Shown here: positions 16,364 to 64,000 of the stretch, piece by piece
How the letters are laid out: the number at the start of each line of letters is the position of its first letter
How positions within the stretch are numbered: the stretch's first letter is position 1
Assembly: GCF_008831285.2 (NCBI RefSeq)
Contig: NC_045143.1
Location: 17,024,464-17,088,463 of the forward strand
Direction: 5' to 3'
Source: Nymphaea colorata
Lineage: Eukaryota; Streptophyta; Magnoliopsida; Nymphaeales; Nymphaeaceae
DNA: 64,000 nucleotides
Translations under genes and position numbers: made by a program
The notes under the pieces: generated by a model
Databases searched by the model: none
What the model was told of the DNA's origin: nothing
The model's input: only the letters and a program-made list of their open reading frames with translations

Positions 16364-16370
16364 TATAAAT
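16364..16370 (+). promoter_or_regulatory. TATA box of the aspartic protease gene
   Basis: TATAAAT lies 99 bases before the chosen start codon, followed by a pyrimidine-rich leader typical of plant transcription starts. It implies a 5'UTR of roughly 65-70 bases. Confidence 0.65.
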
Positions 16371-16462
16371 GCTTCTCTATCTCCCCTCCTCCTGCATCCC
16401 ACCAACAAAATACTGGAATCCCTCGAGAATTCCTTGTGAATTACGGGAAAAAGCAGGAAGCC

Positions 16463-18204
16463 ATGACGACTCTCTGCTCCTTCTTCCTGCTCCTCCTCCT
16501 CTTCTTCTTCTTCCCCACCTTCACGGCCTCGAAGCCAGTAGTTCTTCCCCTCCAAACCATGAAGATTTCCTCGGTAAAGCACACCACACCAACAAGCAAG
16601 CTTCTCTTCCGCTATAACTACAGCTTGGTGGTTCCCCTCAAGGTGGGCACACCTCCACAGCAAATCAACATGGTGGTCGACACCGGAAGCGAGCTGACAT
16701 GGGTTCAGTGCCAGCCCTCTCCTGAACTCAGAGGCCCAATCTTCAACCCTTCGAAATCTTCCTCCTACCATCCTCTCGCTTGCGCTTCAGACGTCTGCGC
16801 GAACAAGGCCAGAGACCTTCCTTCCCCGCCCATCTGCGACTCCAAGAAACTCTGCCACTTTGCTCAGGCCTACGCCGACGGTTCGACCAGCGAAGGCACC
16901 ATAGCCACCGAGACCGTCTCCCTCGGCGACCTCACCCTCCCCAGCCTGGTAATCGGCTGCACCACCTCGAGCTATAGCTCCACCAAGGACGATCAGACCA
17001 TGACCGGACTGATCGGCATGAACAGAGGAGCGCTCTCCTTCGTCTCGCAGGTGGGCTCGCCCCGGTTCTCTTACTGCATCTCCGACACGTCTTCTTCTGG
17101 GGTGCTGGTCATCGGCGAGTCGGACCCGGTCTGGGCGTCGGCGGCGTTGAACTATACGCCGTTTGTTGGTGTCTCGATGCCGCTGCCGTACTTTGATCGC
17201 GTGGCCTACTCTGTCCAGTTGGTGGGGGTTAGGGTGGCCGGAAAGGTGCTGCCGCTACCGAAGACGGTCTTCGTGCCGGACCACACCGGCGCGGGGCAGA
17301 CCATGGTGGACTCAGGGACCCAGTTCACGCTGCTGCTAGGTCCGGTCTACACGGCCTTGAAGAACGAGTACTTGCAGCGAACTAGGGGATTGCTGGGGGT
17401 GTACGAGGACAAGAACTATATTTTCCAGGTAACTTTCTTGACTCAAGCAAAAAAAAAAAATATTGAATCGAGAAAAATGTCGAAGGGTCCTATTCTCAAG
17501 CACGAAAATGGATTTCATTGATGTTTTCCGCGTTTCCGCTTCGAAATGTTATTTATTACGACGCATTAATAGATACTATTTTATCAAAGATTTGTTTCAT
17601 TTACTTTCTGATACGAGTATCTCCTTTTGTAATCACTTCCTATAAATGCAAATGCTCTGTTTTTTGCACGCCGACTTTAGAAGGAATACTTCGAAATGAA
17701 AAGTTATCGAAAGTTCTTCTATGAACAGAAGCAGAAAGTTTACATGCACCACCAAATGTGGAAAAACTTGTCCTTAGAAAACTTTCAATATATCTGCCTT
17801 TGCATTTCAATCTTAAGGGGCTGTCTACTAGACTGTTTGCAAACAAACACATCTTTCTTCATGCGTGCTCGCTTCTTACTTTGGGAACTGTGGATTTTCA
17901 GGGAGCACATGACCTTTGCTACAGGTGGTCCGGCCGGGTGCTGCCGGCGCTGCCGCCGGTGGTGCTCATGTTCAATGGGGCGGAGATGGCGGTGACCGGG
18001 GAGAGGCTGCTGTACAAGGTGCCGGACAGGGCAGGGGTGTACTGCTTCACGTTTGGAAACTCGGACCTGGTGCCCGTGGAGGCATACATCATAGGCCACC
18101 ACCACCAGCAAAACATGTGGGTCGAGTACGACATAGAGAGGTCGAGGCTGGGCTTTGCTCCGGCTAGGTGCGACCTGGCTCGCCAAAGGTTGGTCCGGGG
18201 CTAG
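16463..18204 (+). CDS. PCS1: PCS1-like aspartic protease (pepsin family A1), two exons
   Basis: Exon 1 is 16463-17428 and exon 2 is 17902-18204, joined in phase 0. The donor is CAG|GTAACT and the acceptor TTTTCAG|GG. The product is 422 residues. Residues 1-23 are a strongly hydrophobic Leu/Phe-rich signal peptide. The first catalytic motif DTGS begins at D73 and the second, DSGT, at D283, the two active-site aspartates of pepsin-like enzymes. The stretch GVSMPLPYFDRVAYSVQL and the C-terminal GHHHQQNMWVEYDIERSRLGFA are characteristic of plant atypical A1 proteases of the PCS1 group. In Arabidopsis PCS1 restrains cell death during gametophyte and embryo development; that role is inherited knowledge, not visible here. 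The start was chosen because a signal peptide follows it directly and a TATA box lies 99 bases upstream. An in-frame ATG at 16325 precedes the TATA box, so it is unlikely. Reading exon 1 past the donor adds about 30 unrelated residues, which supports splicing. Confidence 0.92.
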
Positions 18205-47375: not shown

Positions 47376-48773
47376 TCATCCTGTAATGGAGGAAGGTTCT
47401 GATCTCTTGATCATGCCATCAATCTCAACCTCCTTCTGTCTCAGCACCAGCAGCATCCGTTCGTTATCAAGCCTCATCCTCTCGTTCTCCAGTTTCATCC
47501 TCTGTAGTTCCCTCTCTTTTTTCCTGCTGAACTTCTGCCACTTGAACCTCTGCTTCTCTAGCTCGAACGCCTGGCTTTGGAAACGCACCTTCTCCTCCTC
47601 CAGCAGCAGAGACCGGCTTCGAATCCACTGCCTCCGCTCCCACACCGTCTTCCCTGCATCCTGCAGTTCGCTCGCCAACTCAGAGTTCAGCTGGTGCAGC
47701 ATCGTCGACAAAGATGAAACACTGCCATTACCACTACTCCTGCGTAGCCTCTTCGCCGACGCTCTTTTCTCCTCTCCTCCGGCTTCATTTTCATAGCCAT
47801 CGCCACCATCGTCTTCCTCTTCGTCCTCCTCCTCGTCGTCATCTTCACCATCATCATCGTCATGCTCATTCTCATCTTCAGCCTCTTTATGAATTGGGAC
47901 CATATCTTGATTGAAGCAGGGTGGGTTCTGAGGCCTGGACAGCTGCTGCTGCTGAAGTTGCTGAACTATGGCAGGGGCGTCGGCTTCACAAGGGTGGTGG
48001 CCATCGGTGCAGCTGCTGTGGTAGGCACACATCTCCTTGAAGAAGAGATGCTTGGAATTGAGGAGCTTCCTCACCTCTTCCTTCATTTTTGGTGAGATAT
48101 GGTCCATGGTTTCCAGAAGGCTCTGGTTCTCCACCACCCTGCAAGCCGTCCCCTTCCCAAGGATGTCGTTCACCCGCTTGTACCTCTTGTTGAGGTCGTT
48201 GAACTTATCCTCGCATTGTTGCGGGGATACATAGTACCCTCTGTCCAGCATCGCCTTCGACACGGACTTCCACTTCCCCTTCTTCTGCAACATCCCGCCG
48301 CCACTACCACCGGGCTTTTTCTTATCGCCGGTGCCGGAATCCAAACCGGCGGCATCGTCGCCGACGAAGAAAACAACCATGATGAGCAACCTGACCATGT
48401 CATCGGTCCACTTCATCCTCTGCCACGGGGACGCCTTCTTCACAGCCCGCCCATCGCCAGGGCCCCCGTTGCCGTCTTCGGCGATGTAGCCGCTTGCGGT
48501 CTCCTCCTCATCGCTGAAGGACATCTGCTGCTTGCCGGCGGCGGTGGCCTTGGTGGTCATGGGCATCCCGTAGGGATGCTTCTGCTGCGGCTGCGGCTGC
48601 TGAGGATGATGGTGGCTTGTGTTGGCGTCGTGGACGAGGGAAGAGGCGAAGGAGGACAACTGCTGCTGCTGGAGATGGTGGTGCTGCTGCTGATGGGGGG
48701 GCACCTCTAGTCCTAGCATTCCTGATCCCATCCCAGGGAGCATAGAACCTGGCATCCCCCCATTGCTTTCCAT
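47376..48773 (-). CDS. trihelix transcription factor, GT-gamma type
   Basis: Intronless, 465 residues. Residues 25-70 are rich in Gln and His. The trihelix DNA-binding domain spans about 116-205, opening with WQRMKWTDDMVRLLI and continuing through KGKWKSVSKAM and QQCEDKFNDLNKRYKRV. The segment after it (about 213-255, including KLLNSKHLFFKEMCAYHSSC) is the hallmark of the GT-gamma clade, which includes Arabidopsis HRA1 (At3g10040) and At1g21200. A strongly acidic tract follows (298-335), then a basic KRLRR (341-345) and a long charged helix likely to form a coiled coil (376-455). Clade members act in the nucleus; HRA1 tempers the hypoxia response and rice GT-gamma genes respond to salt. Which member this is cannot be told from sequence alone. 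The start is the first ATG of the open frame, followed by the MPGSMLPGMGSGM motif. Confidence 0.93.
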   Translation of the reverse strand: MESNGGMPGSMLPGMGSGMLGLEVPPHQQQHHHLQQQQLSSFASSLVHDANTSHHHPQQPQPQQKHPYGMPMTTKATAAGKQQMSFSDEEETASGYIAEDGNGGPGDGRAVKKASPWQRMKWTDDMVRLLIMVVFFVGDDAAGLDSGTGDKKKPGGSGGGMLQKKGKWKSVSKAMLDRGYYVSPQQCEDKFNDLNKRYKRVNDILGKGTACRVVENQSLLETMDHISPKMKEEVRKLLNSKHLFFKEMCAYHSSCTDGHHPCEADAPAIVQQLQQQQLSRPQNPPCFNQDMVPIHKEAEDENEHDDDDGEDDDEEEDEEEDDGGDGYENEAGGEEKRASAKRLRRSSGNGSVSSLSTMLHQLNSELASELQDAGKTVWERRQWIRSRSLLLEEEKVRFQSQAFELEKQRFKWQKFSRKKERELQRMKLENERMRLDNERMLLVLRQKEVEIDGMIKRSEPSSITG

Positions 48774-49193
48774 TCCTTCTTCCCTCTTTTTCTTCTTCTT
48801 TTGCCTGCCTACCCAAAATTTAGTCTTCCTTTACATGTACACCTTCATTAGGAACAAAGGCGCCACAGATTTCCACAACCCAGATGTTTCTCAGTCGTGG
48901 AGATATGGATGATGGTGACGGTGTTGCTTCTTCTATTATTGAACTTGGAGAGAAAAGAGAGAGGTCAGTACACTTACATGCTAGCTGCTTCTTTTCATTC
49001 TTTCAGTATGTAGAAATGGCTCCTCCTTCTCTGTACGGAGTTCAAATCTCCTGCGGAGAGAGAGACTATGTAGGAGGAGGGTGGATGATGTCCTTGAGAA
49101 ATTCGTCCAAGAAGGGAGACGCATGAGTCGATTTCATGTCCTCCGATCAGAAAAGGAGGAAACAAAAAGCAACTGGATTTGTGCCAAACCACT
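48774..49193 (-). other. 5' leader of the trihelix gene
   Basis: About 420 bases between the start codon and the TATA candidate, CT/GA-rich. It may hold upstream open frames or a 5'UTR intron. No separate gene was seen. Confidence 0.4.
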
Positions 49194-49200
49194 CTTTATA
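49194..49200 (-). promoter_or_regulatory. TATA box candidate for the trihelix gene
   Basis: On the minus strand the sequence reads TATAAAG. It lies 421 bases before the start codon, implying a long leader. It is the best TATA match between the gene and the GA repeat. Confidence 0.4.
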
Positions 49201-49394
49201 TGAAAGCAGCGATAGGAGAAAGAGGGCACGGCAATGGTGGTGCCGTACACGCTCAAAGGCTAAAGCCATGAATGTTTCCCTGCACTTTAAGAGAGAGAAT
49301 GAGAGAGAACATGCTGTTTTGTGCCTGCCCATTGTTTTCTGCTCGGGGCCCCAGTACACAGAAATAACACAAAACTGCTGCAAGCAAAACCAGA

Positions 49395-49397
<3 letters not shown>

Positions 49398-49429
<32 letters not shown>
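49398..49429. repeat. CT/GA repeat upstream of the trihelix gene
   Basis: Sixteen CT units in a row (GA on the coding strand of the trihelix gene), about 625 bases before its start. GA repeats of this kind are binding sites for plant BPC/GAGA-binding proteins, so a regulatory role is possible, but it may be only a microsatellite. Confidence 0.85.
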
Positions 49430-49430
<1 letters not shown>

Positions 49431-50662
49431 AGACAGGCCATTCCATTGGTGGGTTTTGTCCATGGCCGACTCCTACGGTACCACCGCCATTCCCCCACCC
49501 AAATTTTTCTCCGGCAACCCGCAGGCTACCACGCTCGTGGTTTCTGAGTATGCAAACTTTAGTTTTGGACCCGAAACCCAAACAGATCTTACCCGTCGCA
49601 AGTTCCAGGTACCTTCGAGTTCAAAATCCGAGACAAAAGCCGGATCTGATCTCTGTCAGATCTGAATTTGGTTCCAAACTTCAAGTCTGAATTCGAATCC
49701 TAATCCCCAAATGGTAGACCCGATTCAAGTTCGAACAGTTAACCTTCCCACCTCCCCCTGTTTTCTTAATCCAACGTAATTGACAGAAGACCGATAATTA
49801 AAGACGACTTTGGGTAAAGCCGTGCCACGCACATAATGCTGATGTAATGTGCTGATAATATCATATTAATACTCAACCAACCATTCTCATACTATAGTTT
49901 CTTTTACATATCATATGAATAGCAGTCCACGTCTTCTTCCTTATATTAAGATCTCGTTGGCGTGTGGAGCGCCGATTCTTGGGGTTGAACCTTGTGATTT
50001 GAGTGGCGTTCCCCATCAAGATAATGATTCTCCTTTAGACCTACTTTACTTTGCATATAATACATACAGACATATATGTATAGTATAGATTTTTTTTATT
50101 TAATAAAATGTATTGAAGCAACTACGTGTGGGGGCTTAAGTGAGCCCACAATCTACGTCTCCGGCCAAGTCAACCTAGTTCAGGATCGTGCAGCTTTTGT
50201 TGCTTCCGTATTAAATTTTAATCTCAGCCAACACCCGTGTGGATGTGCGGAGCCCGACCATCGACGCCCACAGCACCATAAGAACTTAAACTTGTAATTG
50301 TCATGACAGATTCCCCAGGGGATTTTGTTTTTTTGGGGATATTTTTATTTAAAAACCCAGTTTAAAATAAATTTAACGTGTACGTGCGAAGAAACCAAAA
50401 GGAGAGCTTCGCAGCGGGCTTTTATTTAAAACGTATATGTGTCTGTCCCGATATTTTCACTAAAATAAACCGTCATTCAATGAGTCCCAATTTTACAAGT
50501 AATTGTTTTGCTTTTGTTGTTTATTCTTGGGTGACCCATTTTAATCTCACCCGTTCCTCATTTTGGACCTTCAATGACACCCTCACTCATCTTACTTAGT
50601 TTTGTCAAAATAGGTTTTCATAAACTTAGATTTCTTAATGAGTTCTATTTTTCTTTTTTTTT
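49430..50662. other. non-coding stretch
   Basis: A 67-codon plus-strand frame opening at 49462 (MADSYGTTAIPPPKFF) lies directly beyond the CT repeat. It has no recognisable family and no partner exon, so it is not called. The rest is AT-rich with no recognised feature. Confidence 0.4.
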
Positions 50663-50875
50663 GGTGGCACTCAAAACTTAGTTTTTAAACAATGTAATGG
50701 GAGACCAGGTTTTTAATTCCCTTTTACAAAACCACGTTTTGTCAAAAACCAAATTTTCCTCCAACTCAATTTTGATGGTACCCAAGTACTCAAAAAACAG
50801 GATTTTGGAGGTAAACAGGATTTTACCTTCAAAATCTCGTTTTTGGGTGTCATCCAAACACCCCCTTAAAGGTTA
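50663..50875. mobile_element. Tourist-like MITE (copy 3)
   Basis: The right end GGGTGTCATCCAAACACCCCC is almost the same as in the copy at 11068 and is followed by TTA. The left end (GGTGGCACTCAAAACTTAG) is degenerate. The interior is made of GGTTTT/AAAACC-type tracts like the other copies. Confidence 0.45.
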
Positions 50876-51129
50876 ATGTCTTTTAGTCTTAAAAAATGTG
50901 AAATATTTTTTTACATTAGGACTCCCAAATTAAAAAATGTTGGTTGTGTTAAAAAAGGAGAATGTGTTTGTGACGGGCTGATCCTTCTACTCGCTTGGCC
51001 GGGCCATTATTCTTTTATTTAATCTGGCTAGGTTATTGATTGACTTATTGGCGTCAATTAAGAGATAAAAACAAGAACAAGCTCCGTCTAGTAATCAATT
51101 GAAAATTTAAAGCTGCGATACTTCCTTTT

Positions 51130-51933
51130 AATTAAAGTAAAAAATGTCGTCACCTAAAAGCAAAATTTCAGTAAAATTCAAGTTAAGGCCTCCCGTATGC
51201 CCATGCCTTCTTGCTTAGCCAATAAAACCATTGTAAAGAATTGTAGATGATAAATATTTAACCAACATTTCAAAGTCCAAGGCCTTGAGATTATTTTGTT
51301 TAGAAGGGTTTGGGCACGTGGCTCGTCATAAATGCTATCCATATCAAATACCAGACCTGAAACATTAAAATTGTCTCGTTATTGAACACAAGGACTAGTT
51401 CCTGGCTAAATAATAAGCCGCTTTAAATTTTACCAAAAATGCAGAAGATGTAGATTTCAGTATCAGTTGATTCAGAGGGGAACCCGCTCAGCAGTTTGAG
51501 GTGGAGATCGATAGAATCCCCTGATTCAGATGCTAGAGAAGTTGCAGAAGCGAGCGCATCATTTGTTGACGAAATGGCAACTAGCTGCTGTTTTTGAGAA
51601 TATACAAGAGTATTGCTCTATCTTTGACAATTGACAACCTCCTTACTATAACTAAGAGTTCCGACTATATGATTTACTGGTACCACTAGCAACTGTTTGA
51701 CATTAAGAACAAGGTGTGAATGTTTCATGAATCTACCTCAAAATTGTGGTAAAAACACGTAAACAAATATCTCATGAATCTACTATAATTTTGAGGTAGA
51801 TTTATAGAATACTCACATGTTCTTAACACCAAACAGCCCCTCGACGAACTAAAGAGACAACGTGATGGCTGCATCTCTTTAGAAAGAAAATAAAATTGCA
51901 AAGAAGAATTAGAAGGATGAACATTTTTCTGAA
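51130..51933. repeat. duplicated segment, copy A (partner 62250-63057)
   Basis: About 800 bases align collinearly with 62250-63057 and look roughly 90 percent identical by eye, with small indels. In copy B the same sequence lies just downstream of the FHY1-like stop codon, so this is the 3' flank of a duplicated FHY1-like locus. It ends abruptly at ...TTTTTCTGAA, where copy A jumps to the FHY1 coding remnant. Embedded in it is a MITE (51691-51840). Confidence 0.85.
51691..51840. mobile_element. 150-bp MITE inside duplicated segment A
   Basis: Long terminal inverted repeats of about 55 bases. The left arm runs from AACTGTTTGACATTAAGAAC to CTACCTCAAAATT, and the right arm is its reverse complement, ending TTCTTAACACCAAACAGCCCC. 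The spacer is only about 40 bases. The same element sits at the same place in copy B (62812-62963), so it inserted before the duplication. Confidence 0.65.
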
Positions 51934-51940
51934 CATTTTT

Positions 51941-52138
51941 AGATTCAATGCCTTGTTGCTCAAAGCTTAATGCTGCTTCCGTATGTCTGACAGATGATTG
52001 GGTTATACACTTGACCTTTGATAATGGCAGCGTCAATTGCTCATCTTCTAATTTTCTTTTCTTGCTCCAGTCGATGATAACAAGAGAAGGTGAGACTCCA
52101 TTGCAGCCAATACTGAAGAAGTTGTCAAAACAAGATGG
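51941..52138 (-). pseudogene. FHY1: FHY1-like pseudogene, N-terminal remnant
   Basis: On the minus strand an open stretch of about 65 codons reads CFDNFFSIGCNGVSPSLVII, then DWSKKRKLEDEQLTLPL, then SKVKC. KKRKL...EQL.LPL.K..C is the conserved nuclear-localisation region near the N-terminus of FHY1/FHL proteins. It continues into SFEQQGIES, identical to the first residues visible in the FHY1-like gene at the right edge of the window (64000 downwards). After that codon the sequence departs. About 0.9 kb that follows in the good copy (63058 to about 63973), including the phytochrome A-binding C-terminus, is missing, and the frame runs into 3'-flanking DNA. It cannot make a functional FHY1. Confidence 0.75.
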
Positions 52139-53354
52139 TTAGGCTCAAGTTCCTCAAGAATAGAACAAAAAAAACCAGCAATCTGAATACAAGGACTGTA
52201 ACAAGGAGACAATTTTCCATGATTTGTGCCTAGTGAAAGAACATTCAGAATAATTTTACCATCTGATTCATTATTGGCTAAATGTAGACAATGCAACGGA
52301 TAGCTGCAGCTGAGAAATAACTGGAAATTCCATATCCTTCTGCAATGAACAAATAATTTCATTATCATGTTTTTCCTATTATTTTACAAAGCCCTGTCCC
52401 ACTTCATGTGCATAGGCTTCCTGATTCTGCTCTTTAAATGTAATGCCAAGTTCCGATAATATACAGCATTTGATTGAATCAACAAAAATTTGAAGTTGCA
52501 AGATCTAGGCACAACTTAGCAACTAAAAGCAGTTTCTACATTCTAAGTTAAAAATGAGTTTTCTTCGGGAAAATCTTGGTCAGTCGAAAAAATTAATTCA
52601 GTCATGAACATAAAAACCAAGATTCAACTGTTGGATCACCTGTAGGTTCATTCTCAGTAAATTCTATCCAAAATGATAGAGAAAATTTCAGTTCGCTACA
52701 CAATAGCAACTTAAGCAATAAAAAATAGCTGTAAGTTAAACACACAATTTTTTCAGCAACATATCAGTGAGCAAAAACATAAACATAACTTTCTCATTTG
52801 AGAGAAAAAGCAAAAAACATAAACACATAAACCAATCTGTCCGTTTGGAATTAAGATAGAGGGAGAGAGATACAGACTAAGTTACCCCTCCAAAAATGAA
52901 GATAGGGATGGGAAAGGCCCTACCATAAGTGATAAAAAGGAGGGTTTTCCCAACAGGGAACCAAATTTAGTCAAGACAGAGATAAACACTTCATGTATGT
53001 TTGAAGCCATGGACCTAGAAAAGTAAGTTTGCTTGATAAACCTTCAGTTTGATCTACCTCATTGACATGGTAAATTCATGAGTATCCAGCACACTTTACT
53101 ACAATCAAGAAAGCAGATGATGTAAAAGTGTCATTTCAACGCAAAGTGACTTCAAAACAGCAGGTAGAAAAATATGAGAGATATTCTTCAATAAAGATGG
53201 CATCAAACCTAGAAAATAAAATAAAAGCTTGTCATGCACCAAGGGAGCTGGAGAAGACCCGAACAGGGAAGTGAACACAATTATGAAACCTCATCTGAAT
53301 TTGATCATGAAGCCAAAGGTTGACAAGAACACACTCGAAAAGAAACTTAATGAC
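52139..53354. other. AT-rich stretch between FHY1 and PMS1 remnants
   Basis: No exon was recognised. I looked for the next PMS1 exons (the conserved GQFNLGFI and DQHAADE motifs) on the minus strand here and did not find them. Confidence 0.45.
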
Positions 53355-53831
53355 CTTCATTTTAGCAAAATTCTCTTTTCTGAAGGACCTCTCTAACTCT
53401 CTAGTTGCCGCAGCCAGAGCCCTTGCTTTAGCTTCTTCATCTTCATGCAAGCAACTTGACTCAATTGTTGCAGCAGAATAGCACTTGCACCACAAGCAAA
53501 CAAAGAAAATATACAAGTCCAGTCTGACATAGTCTAAGAGAACACAAATGTCCACTGACCTGCCTAGGGTCCCATTCCTGTTTACATAATTACTGGGACA
53601 TAATATTGACAATCGCTGCTCCCTTCTGCTTCTAAGTTCGTTGAAATCAAAATGCAAAGTTGGATACCTATCTGGCATCTCATTAGACAACTTAATCCTT
53701 TTTGGACTTTGCACAACTACACCACTAGATGATCGTAACACCTGAGCTGCTTGAGCAGTGCTCTCAACCATATTCTCATCACAGCTATTATGAGAATCTT
53801 GTAGCCCTTTATCTTCACTTGTCAGATGCTC
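53355..53831 (-). pseudogene. PMS1: fragment of mismatch-repair gene PMS1 (MutL homologue)
   Basis: Two exon-like blocks on the minus strand. The first (53831-53560) starts after a TTATCCAG acceptor and ends ..LGR|GTCAGT. It contains PTLHFDFNELRSRREQRLSIL, the block that precedes the C-terminal domain in plant PMS1. The second (about 53483-53355) contains CYSAATIE, then KARALAAATRELERSFRKEN, then FAKMK|GTCATT, matching the start of the PMS1 C-terminal region. The gap of about 75 bases between them has a donor but a poor acceptor; it also reads through in frame without a stop. The following exons (GQFNLGFI, DQHAADE) and the N-terminal ATPase are absent from the window. PMS1 works with MLH1 in post-replicative mismatch repair; this fragment cannot. 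Part of a functional gene with a very long intron is possible but unlikely, given the neighbours. Confidence 0.7.
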
Positions 53832-54680
53832 CTGGATAACATCAAATTTTCATTTTCAAAGGAATCAGGAACAAATATATAAGGTACCATTTTAGAGGCA
53901 TATTCATGCAAAGTCAAGCATATACAGTCCACATATAAATTTGAACCAAATATGCTACCTCTCCTTTCCCCATGCACAAGCACATATACAAAGAAGAGAA
54001 ACAAAAACATGAAGAAATCAACCAACAACTGCGCAGCGGGCAAAACCAACACTAAGCAGGCTAAGTCTTAGGGGACCAAAGCAACCTAGTCTTTAGAGGA
54101 CTCTGTACTTAATATTTACAGAGTACAGATACACGCACACACAGTTAATCAAAGGCAGTTGAGAAAATGCACACTAGGTCATGTGGCACTTTCCCTAAAA
54201 TTCTGGGTGAGACAAACCTGAAAAAAAATTCAGATCCTTTCCTTTTCTATAGGACCTTTGGAACAAATGTTGGAGAACCAGAAAAAAAGGAAGACTAAAG
54301 GGAAAAAATAATTAAATAAGACTATAAAATCATCTAACAGTACTTTCACAGCCAAGTCTCTTATGTGACTTGAAGGAAAAACAGAAATACATTAATGTTA
54401 TCTGCAATACCAATTCATTCAGGGTATCTAGCCATCGATATGATACACATGCATGCACATGCACACACACACACACACACACACACATACATATATCAAC
54501 ATGACACCCTAAATAACGTTTGCATCTCTATGAGCATGACACTCTTGAATAATATATCTACCTTCCTCCTTAATGAAACTTCAACAATAAATATTCTATA
54601 AGAAATCATATAGACTTAGTAATTAGGGTTGTCAAGAGACTCAAGACGGTAAAAGTTAACACCCAACCACATATATGTAA
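53832..54680. other. non-coding stretch before the palindrome
   Basis: AT-rich, no earlier PMS1 exon recognised. It contains a CA microsatellite at 54461-54487. Confidence 0.45.
54461..54487. repeat. CA microsatellite
   Basis: A run of about 13 CA units following a GCATGCACATG sequence. Confidence 0.9.
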
Positions 54681-56421
54681 TACACCTAGTAAAATATAAA
54701 AAAGTGCATTACAATTTTACGCCAATTGTTGTACACAACCTGCTCAGTGGACTAGTAAATCAAGTATGAATTAGAGTTGTCGCATACATCATTTTTTGTT
54801 TACCTACCTTTTTAAGTAACCTTAAGCTAGCCCTCCCCTCCCATTTACGCTTATGAAGTAACGCAGAACTGGTGACTTGAAGATCAAGCTTGAGATGGAC
54901 AAGGTGAGTTTTAATTAAGCTAACTAGATGCGATTGCTTGTTGAAATCCATAAGGACATGCCAACTTTCTCACTTAGATGAACTGAGACCGCTTAAACAA
55001 CAGCCGAGTTGAAGCTAGTCAAATGCATCATGTATGTGTGTTCTTGAACTTGTTTCTCAACCCTCTCTGTGGGTCATTAATATCTACACTTCTTGGCGAA
55101 AGTTCCACAATTCTTACAAAGAATTAGAAGTCCACGAATATGGTTATGAAGAAATAAATTCTGCTGAATCCTTTGTTACTGTCATTTGAGTGCATCGCAC
55201 AATGTGAGGTCTAACCCCCATTTATCCATTTAGAAAAAGTTGGTTTTGTAAAATTTAGCGTGTTCATCAATTTTGCTACTTAAAACCAACGTACATTTTG
55301 ATGGCGATATGATATAGAAAAAGTTAAAAGTTATAAAAAAACTAGTTATCTAAAATGTAGTTATTTAAGTAGCGAGCGCCGTGTGTGCCAACTGGAGATC
55401 CCAACTTAGCATTAGATGCAGGCCTTTCTTTTTCATCCTTTTTTCTTATGTGAAAAAATTGGAAACAAAAAGTTATCTATTTATATTTTCCCGATACGGA
55501 GAAACAAAAAGTTATCTATTTATATTTTCCCGATACGGAGCCCCGTATCGGGAAAATATAAATAGATAACTTTTTGTTTCCAATTTTTTCACATAAGAAA
55601 AAAGGATGAAAAAGAAAGGCCTGCATCTAATGCTAAGTTGGGATCTCCAGTTGGCACACACGGCGCTCGCTACTTAAATAACTACATTTTAGATAACTAG
55701 TTTTTTTATAACTTTTAACTTTTTCTATATCATATCGCCATCAAAATGTACGTTGGTTTTAAGTAGCAAAATTGATGAACACGCTAAATTTTACAAAACC
55801 AACTTTTTCTAAATGGATAAATGGTGGTTAGACCTCACATTGTGCGATGCACTCAAATGACAGTAACAAAGGATTCAGCAGAATTTACTTCTTCATAACC
55901 ATATTCGTGGACTTCTAATTCTTTGTAAGAATTTCGCCAAGAAGTGTAGATACTAATGACCCACAGAGAGGATTGAGAAACAAGTTCAAGAACACACATT
56001 AGGTCCTAGTACATGATGCATTTGACTAGCTGTTGTTTAAGAGTTCATCTACGTGAGAAAGTTGGCATGTCCTTATGGATTTCAACAAGCAATCGCATCT
56101 AGTTAGCTTAATTAAAACTCACCTTGTCCATCTCAAGCTTGATCTTCAAGTCACCAGTTCTGCGTTACTTCATAAGCGTAAATGGGAGGGGAGGGCTAGC
56201 TTCTTAAGGTTACTTAAAAAGGTGGGTAACAAAAAGATGATGCAAGCGACAACTCTAAAATGGGAGGGCTAGCTTAAGGTTACTTAACAAACAAGTCGAC
56301 ATAAAATGATGTATGCGACAACTCTAATTCATACTTGATTTACTAGTCCACTGACTCAGCAGGTTGTGTAGAACAATTGGCGTAAAATTGTAATGCACTT
56401 TTTTATATTTTACTAGGTGTA
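54681..56421. repeat. 1.74-kb near-perfect inverted repeat (palindrome)
   Basis: The left arm (54681-55538) and right arm (55543-56421) are reverse complements over almost their whole length, separated by just 4 bases (AGCC). The outer ends are TACACCTAGTAAAATATAAA on the left and its complement, ending ACTAGGTGTA, on the right. The arms differ by scattered point changes, a 39-bp tandem duplication at the tip of the left arm (55462-55539), a direct duplication of about 70 bp in the right arm (56189 to about 56329), and a 10-base insertion near 56002. No transposase and no known protein are encoded; the 63-65 codon frames on the two arms mirror each other. A clean target-site duplication was not found. 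It could be a foldback transposon, a MULE-like long-TIR element without interior, or a head-to-head duplication. A transcript through it would fold into a hairpin of about 860 bp. Confidence 0.9.
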
Positions 56422-56707
56422 TTTATCCCCAATACACCCACTCTTCTTCCAGCCATGCAACATAACCAGCTTCTAATAACATGGCGCCGCTGTGGATATT
56501 CCACCTGAACACTCTTCGGGGGCCCCTTCCTTTGTCATGGTCTCCGTTTAACAAGCTTCATTACAATTCGACAAAGGAACAAGTTTATTTCTAAGCAAGT
56601 TATTAAAAGTGAATCATTCAATAATAAAAATTCTTTAGACTTGAACGAATGAAAAGGGAATTTTAAGGAGAAGTGCCTTCCACAATTTTAAATTTCCAAG
56701 TGTGAAC
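56422..56707. other. right flank of the palindrome
   Basis: Non-coding. AATACACC occurs at 56431-56438 and also at the left boundary of the palindrome (54679-54686), but the spacing is not clean enough to call a target duplication. Confidence 0.35.
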
Positions 56708-56774
56708 TCATAACTCTTTCAAGTTAGGAAATGCTCCCCAAATCTTCCCACTCAAGCTGTTGTTACTTAGATCA
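56708..56774 (-). pseudogene. possible leucine-rich-repeat exon scrap
   Basis: After a TTTTGCAG acceptor the minus strand reads DLSNNSLSGKIWGAFPNLKE and then L and a stop. This matches the plant extracellular LRR consensus (LDLSNNxLSGxIP..) and the acceptor position fits the intron phase usual in LRR receptor genes. It is only about one repeat long and ends in TGA, so it would be a relic of an LRR receptor gene. Chance similarity cannot be excluded. Confidence 0.35.
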
Positions 56775-58007
56775 CTGCAAAATTAGAGTTGGCATCTAAT
56801 GAGTAAATCGAACGACCTGCTCTTATTTTGAGAAGCTGCCTGCCGAGAAGTAGAAAATGGAGTAAAGTAGTACTTGTGGCACCCTCGCTTGGTTTGGTTC
56901 AATTCAACAAAGAGCAAGTCACTAGATCTTAAAAATAGTTCACAGCCGAATGTCTGCAAATTCCCAAACGTGCTTTCTTCTTTTCAAATCAAGCAGGTAA
57001 AAAGCTGAAAATTTTAATCAAATTCGAATTGAAAGAGGAAAGCTCCTTGTCCAGGGAAGAGTCGTTCCGAACAAGTACATTTTACATTGAATTGAATTGA
57101 ATGAAGGCCGTTTAGTGTTGTAGTAGAATCTTGGCATTGATGACTCGCGGACCACCTCAAATAATGCTTTCCCAATTTGAAATCTTCTACGGCCAAGGTG
57201 GCCTATAGCATAGCACCACAATACAATACTTGCATAAGTGGGATTGTCCGGGAAAGCATTTCCCACATTGCTTTTTGTCGTTTGAAAGCGAAAACATCTC
57301 CTTGTCTTCGTAACTTGGATTCTCGTTGTTATCTGATGGTCACACTTGATGAAGATTTCATACTTCACTGTCCAGCTTATAAAACACTTTTCACGCTTAA
57401 TGAAAGATGCTTCCTAATGTTTCTAGGCACCAATAATAACATTGCCATGCTTGGATATTTCAGAACAGAAAAAAAAAAAAAAAAACCCACAAATCTAAAC
57501 AAATGACTCATCAACCGCTCAACGAAGAATTTATGAAAGCTCCGGAGCTAAGCTAGGAAACAAATATTTTTCCATAAATTTCTATCCATTCTGATATTTC
57601 ATTTCAGGATGTCTTTGGAGGGGGGCCCGGCCCACCCACCCATATTCACATACCTGTGCGACGAACTCGCCATTGAGGCCATCAGATTCAAAAATTGACA
57701 TTCAGTGGGTCCCATGCTCTCCATAACCTTGCCAAAGCAAAATTATTTCACCATCCACAAACAAAATCTTGAAGATCGGACAGGACAGCCCCTCCCTCCC
57801 CAACTCCCAACGGCAAGTCCTTAGCTTAGAGCTAGGAGCCATTTTGGAAGAGTTTCTTTTTCTCGGGGTCCCACTATGTAAAATCTTCAAAACCTGCGTG
57901 CTGGGAAAAAAAAAAAAAAAAACTGCAGGGATGAACAGAGCGCGCATCCCCTTGTCAAGAGAAAAGCAGAATCTTGCTTGCTTCACAGGCTCGTATCACC
58001 TTCAACG
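56775..58007. other. upstream region of the UGT relic
   Basis: A 116-codon minus-strand frame (57018-57368) has no recognisable motif. A-runs occur near 57470 and 57905. No promoter element is certain. Confidence 0.4.
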
Positions 58008-58962
58008 ATGGCGGACCGAGGTTCGGTCTCCCATGTTCTAATCTTCCCCTTCCCTACTCAGGGCCACATAAACTGCATGCTCAATCTCGTCCAGCTACTC
58101 TTCCTCGACGGTGACCTCTACGCGACATTCCTCAACTCTGAGCAAAACGACCTGCGTCTCCGTCGGTGCACCGACCTCCACACCCTCCGTAGCTCCCGCA
58201 AGAACTTACGATTCCGTGCAATCACCGACGAGCTGCCGGATGATCACCCAGGTCGGCGGATGATATCCAGGAGCTACATGCTTCGCTGAGGACGACGACC
58301 AAGAACGTCTTCAGGCAGATGCTAATGGCAGCCCAGGAGGAGGGAGGGGATAATATCGGGGAGAGGTGCCACTTGTTTCATGTCTGACTGTTGATGGGAT
58401 CATGTCCTTTGCTGCGGATGTCGCAGAGGGGCTTGGAATTCCATGCATCTCCTTCAGAACGATTAGTGCAGCGAGTTTCTTGGCCTACTTCTGTATACCT
58501 TGGCTTGCGGAAGGTGGAGCGATTCCCTTCGGAGGTATCGTAGTTTCAGATTGCATTCCCTCCCATCGTAGCAACTCCGGTTCTATCATTCTTTATTGAC
58601 TCTTTTTGTTTTTTTTTTTTATTGAGAGTAACAAAGTGCCAAGTTGAGAGGGATCTGTATGATGATGTATTGGTTAGCAGCTGGTTTCTGTTGGTTTTTG
58701 CGATTCGAAAGATCAAGTTCTTGTTTGGCTTGCAGAAACAACAGACATGGCCCGCATCACGAGATGCATTCTAGGAATGGAGGGGGTGGTTCGTCTAAGA
58801 GATCTACCCAGCTTCTGCCGGATAAATGACCTGAACGACGACTTGCTTCGCCTCGTCCTGACCGAAACCCACCAGTCGATGAAGGCAACAGGAATCATCC
58901 TCAACACGTTCTACGATCTTGAGGCACTAGTGCTTCAACAAATTTGCTTTAGAAGCAAGTAA
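58008..58962 (+). pseudogene. UDP-glycosyltransferase pseudogene (UGT709/UGT85-like), truncated
   Basis: It opens MADRGSVSHVLIFPFPTQGH, followed by the INCMLNLVQLL block, the N-terminal acceptor-binding start of family-1 plant UGTs close to the UGT709/UGT85 groups. The frame breaks near 58250, where a single missing base in the DDHP-R-S-A-D-D region leads to a stop at 58287. It breaks again near 58345-58366, before CLTVDGIMSFAADVAEGLGI. An intact intron (58535-58735, G|GTATCG to TTGCAG|AA) joins GGAIPFG to ETTDMARITRCILG in frame. The second exon runs through GIILNTFYDLEALVLQQI and stops at 58960. Everything after that, including the PSPG box that binds the UDP-sugar, is missing. Intact enzymes are about 480 residues and glucosylate small molecules. 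This copy is dead as a glycosyltransferase. Confidence 0.87.
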
Positions 58963-59612
58963 AAAGAAAGAAGATTTGGCTAACTTTTAGCTTAGAAGTG
59001 GTTAATTTTACCTTGATTGTCTGAGCCTAATCGGAGACGAGCGTCGCCTGAGAGAAAGATTCGTCGTCGACCAAAACCGCCTTCTTGACCAGCATCTTCT
59101 GAAGAGAACCAAGGGTTGCCACCATTTCTGTTAAATTCACTATGGCCGCTTTCCATCTCTCTAATCCACTAGTCTCCATTAGGATTCCTCAATCCTTCTT
59201 TCTCTTCTCCTCTTTGAATCAAGATCTGTACTTTCTTACTTAAGAACTCCCCAGTTTCTTCTTATTCTTCTTCCCTCCTCTTCTTCCAATAGGATTGAGA
59301 TTACCCAAGTTCTTGTTTGTCGTCTATTTTCCACTGAGTTAAGATTCCACAAGCCTCCTCCATCTCCTTTTGTCCAGAATCAGCCAATTCCTTCTTCTCC
59401 TCCTCGTTCATACTTCAAGCACTAGTGAATTTGCACTAGTTAAAGCAATCATGCAAGCAAATGACAATCTTAACTAGAAAAAAAAAATACAAGTATGTGT
59501 TTACATGGATATAGCTGAAGTATGTGTTTCACCATGAAAAGCTACCATGAACCTTAGTTACACAACACATAGAATGACAACACATAGAACGAGCTTAAAT
59601 AGTTGAAGTTTC
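58963..59612. other. stretch between UGT and terpene synthase relics
   Basis: The UGT homology ends sharply. The sequence from about 59020 to 59360 is pyrimidine-rich and of different character from its surroundings, possibly inserted DNA, with no recognised motif. Confidence 0.35.
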
Positions 59613-59915
59613 TATAATTTTGGCAATGATAAACATGGAAAACGAAATCTGATTTTTGTGAAAAGATTTTCTTTTCCTTTGTCATTAATTTTGATTGATA
59701 TTGCTTAGATTATTTCCTTTAATTTCTCTAGAACAATTGTCTTTCAACATTATCGTTTAACACTATAATCTTGACAATGATAAACATAAGAAACTAAATC
59801 TGATTTTTTTTGGAAAGATTTTCTTTTTACTTTATCATCAATTTTAATTGATCTTGTTGGGATTCTTTCTTTGAATTTCTCTAACACGGTTGCATGTCAA
59901 CCTTATCGCTAACAG
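59613..59915. repeat. tandem duplication of about 151 bp at the 3' end of a terpene synthase intron
   Basis: Unit 1 (59613-59763) and unit 2 (59764-59915) both begin TATAAT.TTG.CAATGATAAACAT and align throughout with roughly 80 percent identity by eye. Unit 2 ends ATCGCTAACAG, the splice acceptor of the terpene synthase exon. The matching end of unit 1 is ATCGTTTAACAC, which lacks the AG. Confidence 0.8.
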
Positions 59916-60179
59916 AATGAGGCAACGGTAGCGGAGGAGCAATCACGACAACACATAAGGAACTTGCTAAGGGATGCATGGAGGAGGCTCAATAGGGAGC
60001 TTTTCTCGGCTCAGTAGCAGCAACATGTCACCTTCTGTCGTTCATTCATGAACGTGGCTCTCAACATTGCGAGGGTCTCTCAGTGCTTGTACGACTATGA
60101 AGATGGGGTTGGTGTCTTGGAGCATGAGTCCATGGACCGAGTTTACTGTCTCATTGCCGAGCCTATCCAGACTGCCTAA
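59916..60179 (+). pseudogene. terpene synthase, last exon with premature stop
   Basis: 88 codons after a CTAACAG acceptor. The translation has RQHIRNLLRDAWRRLNRELF, then after the break SFMNVALNIARVSQCLYDYE, DGVG, and finally DRVYCLIAEPIQ and a TAA. This is the conserved C-terminal exon of angiosperm TPS-a/TPS-b enzymes (helices after the NSE/DTE metal site, ending in a REPI-like tail). Codon 34 is TAG (60015-60017). No other TPS exon (RRX8W, DDXXD) was found in the window, so the exon stands alone. TPS enzymes cyclise prenyl diphosphates to mono- or sesquiterpenes; this relic cannot. Confidence 0.85.
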
Positions 60180-60524
60180 GCAAACCACTATGTTGGTGCC
60201 CATTAACTGAATCCTACTTATGATGCTATGTATCATCATATAATAAATTAGACACAATAATACATTAAATTTAGTTCTCTGTCTCTTTGTTTCTCTCTCT
60301 TTATCTCTCTCTCTCACACACACACACATGTATGCGCGCAGTCTGTGTAGTGTGTTTAATTATATTGGTTTGCTTCCAATCTCAACTTTACTATAATTAG
60401 AACTGTTTGACTAAGTGTGAATTGTGCTCCTATTTGATAACTTGAACAAAAAACTATTTGAGTAAACTTACATATCCTGCACAAAATGAGTCTTTGTCAG
60501 TGTCAATATGAAAAGAAAATAAAG

Positions 60525-60566
<42 letters not shown>

Positions 60567-62249
60567 GACCCATCATTATCTTTCTTCAAACTTTATTAAT
60601 CTTCATGTTTTACACTGTGGAAATCAATCACAAAAATGAGTTTTATAAGCTTAAAATGATGATATTGACTATTAAGATCTTATTTTTGCATTGTAATGCC
60701 ATTTTAGGTAGAGTTCTATTGTTTTGAGGACCAAGATTTACGTCTACATTTTACACTAAAATGATATGGAATGTTAAAAGCGGGTGTGACAAATTCAGCA
60801 CACTTTTTCTATCAATCTTTTGTAAGAGATCTTCTAGATCCCAAAAGCAATAAATTCCAGAAATCATAATAAATAACAATTTAACATTAATTTCAAACTT
60901 AAGCACGTTTGAAAGTGATTATGCGAGCCAATGCATATGAACGACACGAGATGGTGTTTCAATTTTTGATACACATGAAAGAAACGTGTGAGCTCCACCT
61001 ACTCGGTGAAAATCGGTTGAAGTAGGCAGGATCCGAGGGGTGGAGCCGGTCCGACGAATAACGTTTCCAGGGAACTTCAACCCCAAAGCTCTGTCTCCTT
61101 GATTTCCTCTATTTACTCAATAGCCGCCGGCAACCCGGACGACTGATGGCTACCCGCAGCGCCCGTGACAGATGACATCTCCTTCTCTTCTTCACTGGTT
61201 TTTCTCTCCAACTCACTTCCTCTCGATCTCGCGTTCTCTCAACTGTTTTCTCCTTGCCCACCTCCTGCAGCCCAAATGCACCAATGGCCTCATATTCCGA
61301 CTATTTTTTCTTAATTAAGCATGACCTCAAACGAAAGAGACTCATGTAAAAAGAAAACAGAGAAGTGGTAGTTATGAGTAGCTGCATTCTACCGCTATAC
61401 TTTCGAAAACATATCAAACATTTCTTTGCCATAATTTGCTTTTCAGCCAATTGAGTAAACATGAGAAGGGCACAAGAAATTGAGCATAAAACATGTGTTT
61501 TCATTTTCCTTCTAACAACCAATTTTTATCAAATCAAGTCAATTTTCATGTTCACCTATTATTTTTGCCTTTTGTACTTGAGATTTTTTGGCTATCTATT
61601 CTTTTGCTTTGCCCAGATATCCAACCTAGCTTGTTTTCTAGTTGAATAAGAATTGGGCAGTCCTTGTTCTCCTTTATCCAATTCCCTAGATATTTGATCT
61701 ATGGGTAGCAAAGTTGATGGCGTGGAGGGAGTTGGGTAGCCAGAATGATAAAACTAGGTTGTGCACATATTTTTTGTAGTTGAACCATGAAGTTATAAAC
61801 TACTATTCAAGTCTTTGTTCGTTTTCATTGGTGTTTTTTCTCTGTTAGAGATCTTTTCATTAGTTTTATCATTATTGAGTAAGCAAATTGTTCGAATAGT
61901 TTTCATTTTCTATGCCATATACATAGAAATGTTGAGATCTTTTAATGTTAGCAAATGAGGTTGTTATATTTGTAAGCACATCTACTCCTATTTTTTATTG
62001 CTAATAGTTGTGGTAGGACTTTGATTTTTATCGCATTGATTTGTAGTGATTTTTGATATCTGATGAGCTTTTTCTCAGTAACCATGAAAAAAAGTGAATC
62101 AATTAGCTCCATAGCCAAATCGTCTTTCCTAGAATGGTGAATGAAACCTTCATCCATCATGACATTGAAACGACTGAAATTCTTAAATTCCTCATTTTAT
62201 AAATATATTGACATTGAGTTGAGAAGATAGGTGACTTATGTAATGATTT
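60180..62249. other. non-coding AT-rich stretch
   Basis: It contains a long AT microsatellite and a CT/CA-rich tract near 60285-60328. A locally GC-richer patch at 61010-61270 has no recognisable coding sequence. Confidence 0.45.
60528..60562. repeat. AT microsatellite
   Basis: An uninterrupted AT run of about 35 bases. Confidence 0.95.
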
Positions 62250-63057
62250 AATTAAAGTAAAAAATGTCGTCACCTAAAAGCAAAATTTCAGTAAAATTTA
62301 AGGCCTCCCGTATGTCCATGCCTTCTTGTTTACCAAATAAAACCATTTTAAAGAATTGTAGATGATAAATATTTAACCAAGACTTCAAAGTCCAAGTCAT
62401 TGAGATTATTTTGTTTCGAAGGGTTTGGGCACGTGGCTCGTCATAAATGCTATCCATATCAGATACCAGATCTGAAACATTAAAATTGGCTCGTTATCGA
62501 ACACAAGGACTAGTTCCAGGCTAAATAATAAGCCGCCTTAAATTCTACCAAAAAAGCAGAAGAAGACGTAGATTTCAGTATCAGTTGATTCAGAGGAGAC
62601 CCGCTAAACAGATTGACGTGGAGACTGACAGAGTCCCCTGATTCAGATGCTACAGAAGTTGCAGAAGCGAGCACATCATTTGTTGACGAAATGGCAACTG
62701 GCTGCTGATTTGAGAATATACAAGAGTATAGAAATATCTTTGACAATTGACGAACTCCTTACTCTAACTCTAACTAAGAGTTCTGACTATATGATTTACT
62801 GGGACCATTCGGAACTGTTTGGCATTAAGAACAAGGTGTGAGTGTTTCATGAATCTAACTTTGTGGTAAATTTTGTAACACGTAAACAAATATCTCATGA
62901 ATCTACTATAATTTTGAGGTAGATTCATAGAATACTCACATGTTCTTAACACCAAACAGCCCCTCGACGAACTAAAGAGACAATGTGATGGCTGCATATC
63001 TTTAGAAAGAAAATAAAATTGCAAAGAAGAATTAGAAGGTATGAACATTTTTCTGAA
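62250..63057. repeat. duplicated segment, copy B (partner 51130-51933)
   Basis: It is collinear with copy A and lies just 3' of the FHY1-like gene. A minus-strand frame (62510-62746, SSTNDVLASATSVASESGDS) is partly conserved in copy A, but a 1-base indel changes its end, so coding is doubtful. It may be part of the FHY1 3'UTR or of an unknown neighbouring gene. Confidence 0.85.
62812..62963. mobile_element. 150-bp MITE inside duplicated segment B
   Basis: It has the same terminal inverted repeats (GAACTGTTTGGCATTAAGAA on the left, TTCTTAACACCAAACAGCCCC on the right) and the same position as the element at 51691-51840. Its left arm has decayed more than that of copy A. Confidence 0.65.
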
Positions 63058-63211
63058 TGCCGAGATAATTCTAGGAAGAAACGGTCGAATAAATAGCTGT
63101 GATAGCAACTTTTTGCACAGCTAGTAAGGTTTTGCATGTGATTAATTTACTGCGAAGTACATAATTTATTTTGTCACAAAATGATCATGTTTATGCAACA
63201 AGAAGTCTAAA

Positions 63212-64000
63212 CTAAAGCATAAGTGAGGAGAAATACTGCTCAAATTCTTGATCGATTGTCGGTTTCCTCTCACACTTAACACTGCCTGCATCCCAAAAAA
63301 AAACAGTTAAACTACATCATGTATACTTGCAGAGATTATAAGGCCTTCAATGAAATTTGCAAGATTCACCTTGGCCATTCGATCCACCGGAAGAGAGCAG
63401 ATAGATAGGCGAAGGTGCATCACTGAAATACAGGGAGGTGTCGTTATCTGTGTTTCGACATGCCTCAAAGTCGATTAGCTCATCATAGCTTATGCCCAAG
63501 TCTAGCAGCTGATCGTATCCTGAATATGAAAATTCTGTTTCATCATCTAAACATTCATTCAAATTTTCAACGTCCACCTCCCTATCTAGGACACCAATAC
63601 AGTTCAACAGCTTGGTGGGAGAGTTTGATTCTTTTCTTGCAAGTTCTGTTTTTTCTTCTTTCTCACTGTCCTTTGATTTCCTTGTGATTGTTCTGCTATC
63701 TAAGGAATACAAATTTTCCCTGAAAGTGCTACCATCAGAATCTTCAGAGAAGGAAGATTGTTTAATTTCATCTTGTGAACCAAAAGGCATTCTGATGCGG
63801 AAGTCACCAAAAGAGTTGTTGCTTCCAGTGCAAGAACTTGAATCTCCGGACCAAGTTACCAGTTTGGTGTATCCTCCGCCACTATCTGTAGGTGATAAAA
63901 CATCAGTGAGCATGCTCTTGGGATCACAGTCCTTCGATCCATACATAGACTTCTGATTACAAGTGCCAGTGTTAGATTCAATGCCTTGTTGCTCAAAGCT
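63212..64000 (-). CDS. FHY1: FHY1-like protein (FAR-RED ELONGATED HYPOCOTYL 1), 3' part
   Basis: The coding exon enters from the right edge (64000) and runs to 63370 (donor CAAG|GTGAAT). The final exon is 63285-63212 (acceptor GATGCAG|GC), in frame, stop TAG at 63214-63212. Together they give 234 residues in this window. The C-terminus reads KPTIDQEFEQYFSSLML, essentially the invariant tail of FHY1/FHL proteins that binds light-activated phytochrome A. Just before it, SPIYLLSSGGSNGQ corresponds to the family's YVLSSGRWSVNQ. The acidic middle part is Ser-rich and variable, as usual. The N-terminal nuclear-localisation region lies beyond the window, but its duplicate is visible at 51941-52138. 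FHY1 carries phytochrome A into the nucleus in far-red light. No stop or frameshift is seen, so this copy looks functional as far as it goes. Confidence 0.87.

What the first reader, a model, noticed from the sequence alone, without database searches (positions are those of the whole stretch)
54681..56421. A 1.74-kb almost perfect palindrome with a 4-base loop
Two arms of about 860-880 bases are reverse complements with very few differences and nearly no spacer. Such structures are unstable and usually decay quickly, so this one is young or maintained. It encodes nothing recognisable and matches none of the gene fragments beside it. If transcribed, it would give a long double-stranded hairpin, a classic source of 21-24 nt small RNAs. 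It lies among broken genes, so it may be a foldback or long-TIR element or an siRNA-producing locus of a new family.
Basis: partly seen in the sequence, partly recalled or inferred. Interest (0 to 1): 0.72.

Follow-up and report, generated by a model that had tools for sequence, protein, structure and literature searches.

The report
Inverted duplication of receptor-kinase gene fragment
A plant chromosome carries a 1.7-kb near-perfect mirror-image sequence that is most likely not a mobile element but a fairly recent inverted duplication of a broken piece of a receptor-kinase gene, probably made when a broken DNA end folded back and copied itself; it could produce small RNAs, but nothing here shows that it does.

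Summary
The palindrome is real: arms 54679-55538 and 55543-56423, 4-base spacer, 8 substitutions in 794 ungapped aligned bases, plus about nine indels. It is very probably not a foldback element. In the host assembly (408 Mb plant) the outer 550 bp of the arm occur in single orientation at two places on contig C5, in what reads as an intron of malectin-like LRR receptor-kinase genes, and the inner 250 bp once on C10 (77%). The C5 match runs through the right edge of the palindrome into the right flank, to an LRR exon and a scrap of malectin exon (56424-56866), but not past the left edge. So the right arm is continuous with an older gene fragment and the left arm is a truncated inverted copy. 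A 20-mer beside the C10 match shows that inverted sequence lay near the centre before the duplication, which fits fold-back priming at a short inverted repeat. Each arm keeps ancestral alleles that the other lost, so an assembly fold-over is very unlikely. A transcript would be a strong hairpin (-1368 kcal/mol; 10 controls -363 to -557); small-RNA output is untested. Ordinary in kind, unusually well recorded.

The parts
54679..55538 (-). Left arm: inverted, truncated copy of the right arm
   Evidence: C5 homology stops at 54679 and does not continue into the left flank
54679..55230 (-). Module A in the left arm: receptor-kinase intron-like sequence, inverted
   Evidence: 84% to C5:4781181-4781787 and 82% to C5:4804225-4804834
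55231..55538 (+). Module B in the left arm; one relative found, on C10, 77%
55462..55539 (+). 39-bp tandem duplication, left arm only, next to the centre
55539..55542 (.). Central spacer AGCC
55543..55811 (-). Module B in the right arm
55812..56423 (+). Module A in the right arm (presumed parental): receptor-kinase intron-like sequence
   Evidence: carries most of the derived changes
56416..56438 (.). 8-bp stem, 7-nt loop, exactly at the outer edge of the right arm
56424..56802 (-). Right flank: rest of the intron and an LRR exon (reads DLSNNSLSGKIWGAFPNLKEL) of the receptor-kinase fragment
   Evidence: 15 of 379 sites differ from C5a; frame read by eye
56803..56866 (-). Scrap of malectin-like exon joined to the LRR exon after loss of about 1.4 kb
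   Evidence: Malectin_like in the C5 relatives

Best explanation
The palindrome is an inverted duplication of sequence that is single-copy at its relatives. Shown: a fragment of a malectin-like LRR receptor-kinase gene (intron-like stretch, LRR exon, piece of malectin exon) lies on C6 next to module B; the right arm is part of that fragment; the left arm is its inverted copy, cut off where the right arm runs on into its flank. Inferred: a broken or stalled strand ended in module B, folded back on a short inverted repeat at what is now the centre, was extended by copying its own strand for about 0.86 kb, stopped at the counterpart of 56423 and was joined to unrelated sequence at 54678. The arms then diverged by substitutions and small indels. 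If transcribed it would fold into a long hairpin RNA; any silencing role is secondary and unproven.
For: Single-orientation relatives: A at two C5 loci, B at one C10 locus, none palindromic in the stretches compared. Homology to C5 crosses the right edge (56258-56802 at 91%) but not the left. C5 relatives are receptor-kinase genes: Malectin_like and kinase Pfam hits, then GDPC and LRR exons read by eye, in order. The 20-mer at the centre, with up to 1 mismatch, was reported in the whole assembly 3 times in the palindrome and once more, starting 12 bases past the end of the C10 match and in the inverted sense (sequence), so inverted sequence near the centre predates the duplication. The copy ends exactly at an 8-bp stem; 0.36% of window positions lie within 1 nt of such a stem end. 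Yeast precedents: inverted duplications centred on natural 3-15 bp inverted repeats (PMC10622511, passages); short fold-back inversions captured by end joining (PMC11724301, passages).
Against: Polarised against C5, 6 of 7 resolvable substitutions (of 8 in all) and 6 of 8 module-A indels are derived in the right arm, the presumed parent; an error-prone copy would predict the reverse (6:1 gives p = 0.125). The short fold-backs in the PMC11724301 passages are about 2-150 bp, far below 0.86 kb. C10 keeps only one side of the putative central inverted repeat, so its extent before the duplication is inferred. The stem at the outer edge was noticed after the fact. The origin of the left flank was not established (searches unanswered).
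Confidence: 0.8

Rival explanations
1. A foldback or long-TIR transposable element (MITE, MULE or foldback family) inserted here.
For: Long near-identical terminal inverted repeats with a tiny spacer. An 8-bp direct repeat, AATACACC, stands at 54679-54686 and 56431-56438.
Against: That direct repeat lies inside the left arm and is the other half of the edge stem; C5a has it at the same place without a palindrome. With ends shifted by up to 6 bases the best flank match is 4 bases. No other palindromic copy was found (lower bounds); homology crosses the right edge; arm content is receptor-kinase intron-like sequence.
Confidence: 0.05
2. A hairpin-RNA locus maintained because its siRNAs regulate the receptor-kinase cluster on C5 or the AP2-domain gene near the C10 match.
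For: Very stable predicted hairpin; 172 exact 21-mer positions in the 50 kb of C5 examined and 5 in the 20 kb of C10; gene-derived palindromes in Arabidopsis make siRNAs (PMC13213937, passages).
Against: The shared 21-mers lie in what reads as intron (C5) or about 1.3 kb upstream of the AP2 frame (C10), so mature mRNA would probably not be cut; stem perfection is explained by youth; the arms are decaying by indels; no transcript or small-RNA data on hand.
Confidence: 0.1
3. An assembly or sequencing fold-over (for example a missed adapter).
For: Tiny spacer and high identity are typical of such artefacts (general knowledge).
Against: Each arm keeps blocks of 7-11 bp, also present at both C5 relatives, that the other arm lost; the two flanks differ.
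Confidence: 0.04
4. Two-step origin: an older inverted pair of module A, with a separate B palindrome inserted later in its centre.
For: 0 of 8 substitutions and 1 of 9 indels fall in B; 16 of 17 events in A (p about 0.009).
Against: C10 shows B in one orientation only; arm-to-arm conversion near the centre would explain the same gradient.
Confidence: 0.1

Closest known systems
Fold-back (hairpin-primed) inverted duplications at breaks near short inverted repeats, yeast (PMC10622511, PMC11724301; passages seen)
   Same: Inverted copy of adjacent sequence, short inverted repeat at the centre, second end joined to unrelated sequence
   Different: Here a 0.86-kb copy in a plant chromosome with no dicentric or large rearrangement in sight; mechanism inferred from sequence only
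Arabidopsis Cvi VIM4-VIM2 and PAI4-PAI1 palindromes (PMC13213937; passages seen)
   Same: Gene-derived inverted repeats that can form long RNA stems
   Different: Those make siRNAs, and the VIM4-VIM2 stem covers a first exon and intron; here the arms are intron-like plus non-coding sequence and expression is unknown
Inverted pseudogene pairs in rice (PMC2708354; passages seen)
   Same: Broken gene copies in inverted order able to form hairpin RNA
   Different: The rice example has a 185-nt duplex and a 1,283-nt loop; here about 0.86 kb and 4 nt
MITEs and near-gene inverted repeats of Arabidopsis (review PMC12595863; passages seen)
   Same: Inverted repeats that often yield 24-nt siRNAs
   Different: No shared element ends, further palindromic copies or target-site duplication found here

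Membership tests
Foldback / long-TIR transposable element | Inverted repeats flanked by a target-site duplication | tested here: not met
   With each end shifted by up to 6 bases the best flank match is 4 bases, at unmatched shifts; 2-3 bp duplications cannot be excluded; the 8-bp direct repeat AATACACC lies inside the left arm and exists at C5a without a palindrome
Foldback / long-TIR transposable element | Element ends bound the homology among copies; several copies | tested here: not met
   C5 homology crosses the right edge; no second palindromic copy found (lower-bound searches)
Fold-back inverted duplication | Parent sequence exists in one orientation | tested here: met
   C5 and C10 relatives
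Fold-back inverted duplication | Parent arm continuous with its flank, copy arm truncated | tested here: met
Fold-back inverted duplication | Short inverted repeat at the centre before the event | tested here: inconclusive
   C10 keeps one side, starting 12 bases past the match; the other side is inferred
Fold-back inverted duplication | Copy arm carries the changes of error-prone synthesis | tested here: not met
   6 of 7 resolvable substitutions are derived in the presumed parent arm; not significant and not strictly defining
Hairpin-RNA / siRNA locus | Long near-perfect stem if transcribed | tested here: met
Hairpin-RNA / siRNA locus | Transcription and 21-24 nt small RNAs from the arms | not testable with these tools
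   no RNA data on hand
Young MIR gene by inverted duplication of a target gene | Arms match exon sequence of a target gene | tested here: not met
   In the C5 (50 kb) and C10 (20 kb) stretches examined, shared 21-mers lie in intron-like or upstream sequence; the rest of the genome was not examined for 21-mers

The most novel reading that the evidence does not exclude
A fold-back event with both template points still readable: entry at an older short inverted repeat (trace on C10) and exit at an 8-bp stem. It would be an intermediate between gene fragment and hairpin-RNA locus, whose 24-nt siRNAs could methylate introns of a receptor-kinase cluster on another chromosome.
Probability: 0.08. Interest if true: 0.5.

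Novelty: new member of a known kind. Interest (0 to 1): 0.22.

Why it matters
Long near-perfect palindromes are expected to be lost quickly (general knowledge), and their origin is usually hard to read. Here relatives of the parent sequences survive elsewhere in the same genome, so copy direction, both breakpoints and the changes on each arm can be named. It also warns that a striking palindrome among broken genes need not be a mobile element.

Tried and rejected
Pfam on read-through translations of window 49000-64000 (2 of 3 minus-strand frames, no plus-strand frames) and of C5:4780501-4786000 (5 of 6 frames) gave nothing; chosen C5 reading frames then gave the receptor-kinase domains. A simple text pattern for LRRs found none in C5 or in window 49000-64000, only GDPC once in C5; the LRR exons were read by eye in the frames printed there. 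Rfam and tRNA scans of the window: none. The 205-aa frame at 53232-53849 had no Pfam or PDB-sequence match. Methylation decay: CpG observed/expected is 0.71 in the palindrome, 1.26 in B, 0.70 in the window, 0.47 in the C5a intron-like stretch, and 1 of the 7 polarised changes is of the C-to-T kind, so no sign of it. Host: assembly size (407.8 Mb, 783 contigs) resembles Nymphaea colorata (409 Mb, 804 scaffolds; PMC7015852, passages), but this is a guess, not a test. A background count of long palindromes was planned and dropped.

Literature: searches were seen as listings (titles, abstract beginnings); passages were seen of PMC7015852, PMC13213937, PMC2708354, PMC10622511, PMC11724301 and PMC12595863. 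None was read whole.

Full report
Observation. The two arms (54679-55538, 55543-56423) are reverse complements around a 4-base spacer. Aligned, they give 786 matches, 8 mismatches and 114 gap columns; the second copy of a 39-bp tandem duplication at the centre of the left arm lies outside that alignment. Folded as RNA the 1,745 nt reach -1367.6 kcal/mol, with 787 pairs across the centre, against -363.3 to -557.0 for 10 same-length control stretches of the window.

Parents. The window lies in an unnamed assembly of 407,766,735 bases, contig C6; its genes are those of a plant. A search of that assembly with the left arm found, besides the palindrome itself, two C5 places covering arm positions 2-550 (84% and 83%) and one C10 place covering 551-797 (77%). 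The tool scores only its best candidates, so counts are lower bounds. A separate search with the inner module found only the palindrome and C10. In the stretches compared (C5 50 kb, C10 20 kb) none of the three outside places is palindromic.

What the parent is. On C5 the matching stretch lies on the minus strand of a receptor-kinase gene, in this order: Malectin_like exons (E 9.4e-46 and 4.3e-21), an exon with GDPC, LRR exons, the matching stretch, then kinase pieces (Pkinase E 0.0012, below its curated cut-off, for the first; PK_Tyr_Ser-Thr E 1.1e-7, above it, for the last). The LRR exons were read by eye; a text pattern for LRRs did not catch them. With no transcript to hand, 'intron' is inferred from that order, and whether the C5 genes are intact was not tested. 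In the window the match continues from the right arm into the right flank: the LRR exon is present with a 9-bp loss, followed by a 63-bp piece of malectin exon after about 1.4 kb missing relative to C5. That malectin piece also matches three further C5 places at 4.94, 5.03 and 5.07 Mb. To the right of it, pieces of 56884-57910 resemble another C6 place at 16.45 Mb at 69-79%, so the surroundings are a patchwork of gene pieces.

Copy direction. Homology with C5 passes 56423 without a break and stops at 54679. The right arm is therefore continuous with the older fragment and the left arm is the inverted copy.

Age and decay. In module A the arms differ at 8 of 525 aligned sites; 15 further changes are shared by both arms against both C5 copies and so predate the duplication or lie on the C5 branch. 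Six differences are derived in the right arm, one in the left, one is unresolved. Module-A indels: six derived in the right arm (losses of 9, 11 and 7 bp; gains of 3, 58 and 4 bp), two in the left (losses of 11 and 11 bp); the 58-bp gain and the 11-bp loss beside it form one gap run and their split depends on the alignment (one search counts 7 runs). The right-arm bias is against the simple idea that the copy is the error-prone arm, but 6:1 is not significant (p = 0.125). Module B has no substitution in 269 aligned bases; 16 of 17 events lie in A (p about 0.009), which suggests conversion between arms near the centre, or a two-step origin. With three substitution rates recalled from other plants the age comes to about 0.4-1.2 million years; arm-to-arm conversion would make this too young.

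Centre and edge. At C10, starting 12 bases past the end of the module-B match, the 20-mer of the palindrome's right half stands in the inverted sense with one mismatch; in the whole assembly the pattern with up to one mismatch was reported only there and three times in the palindrome. So inverted sequence near the present centre is older than the palindrome. At the outer edge the copy ends exactly at the inner end of an 8-bp stem with a 7-nt loop, the only such stem listed in 54600-56500 apart from the centre; C5b has one and C5a two differences in its first half. This coincidence was noticed after the fact. Because of that stem, AATACACC stands as an 8-bp direct repeat at 54679-54686 and 56431-56438; a 7-bp one, ACACCCA, joins 54659-54665 and 56434-56440. 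Neither sits where a target-site duplication would, and the right-hand AATACACC is present at C5a; they could be microhomology, which I cannot test.

Mechanism. Best reading: fold-back priming at a short inverted repeat, strand extension, then joining to unrelated sequence. Yeast work describes fold-back annealing at 3-15 bp natural inverted repeats (PMC10622511, passages) and a mixed route of polymerase-delta extension and end joining for short fold-backs (PMC11724301, passages). I give about 0.9 to 'inverted duplication of a gene fragment' and about 0.6 to fold-back priming as the route.

Function. A hairpin transcript is possible. A review reports that around 486 of 634 near-gene inverted repeats in one Arabidopsis accession make 24-nt siRNAs (PMC12595863, passages), so siRNAs would be no surprise. 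Exact 21-mers shared with the examined stretches number 172 positions on C5 and 5 on C10, in intron-like and upstream sequence. This favours at most an effect on DNA methylation, not on mRNA.

Artefact. A fold-over read would give arms that differ only by error. Here the arms differ by blocks whose ancestral state is vouched for by the two C5 copies, some kept by the left arm and some by the right, and the flanks are unlike. Raw reads were not available.

Noticed in passing
51127-52514 and 62247-64554: Direct duplication in two blocks (90.5% and 95.4%) flanking the palindrome and the UGT fragment (the second block runs past the window end).
   Followed up: partly
57882-58289: N-terminal piece of a UDP-glycosyltransferase, best PDB-sequence match 2pq6 at E 5.1e-6, no Pfam match; further frames suggest a broken gene.
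   Followed up: no
53232-53849 (-): Frame that recalls a plant MutL-type mismatch-repair protein; from recall only, no Pfam or PDB match.
   Followed up: no
56962-57052 and 59577-60187: Match a place about 100 kb downstream on C6 (17.19 Mb, L029) at 88-96%; the receptor-kinase fragment and palindrome to the left of them have no match in that 3-kb locus.
   Followed up: partly
59612-59908: Two copies of a 153-bp unit, 80% alike.
   Followed up: no
56189-56327: Right-arm tandem duplication whose two copies are only 78.6% alike although the arms are 99% alike outside gaps; mostly different internal losses by eye; unexplained.
   Followed up: partly
16295-18204 and 47376-48830: Aspartyl protease of TAXi type, and a protein with Myb_DNA-bind_4 (trihelix type, recalled).
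   Followed up: no
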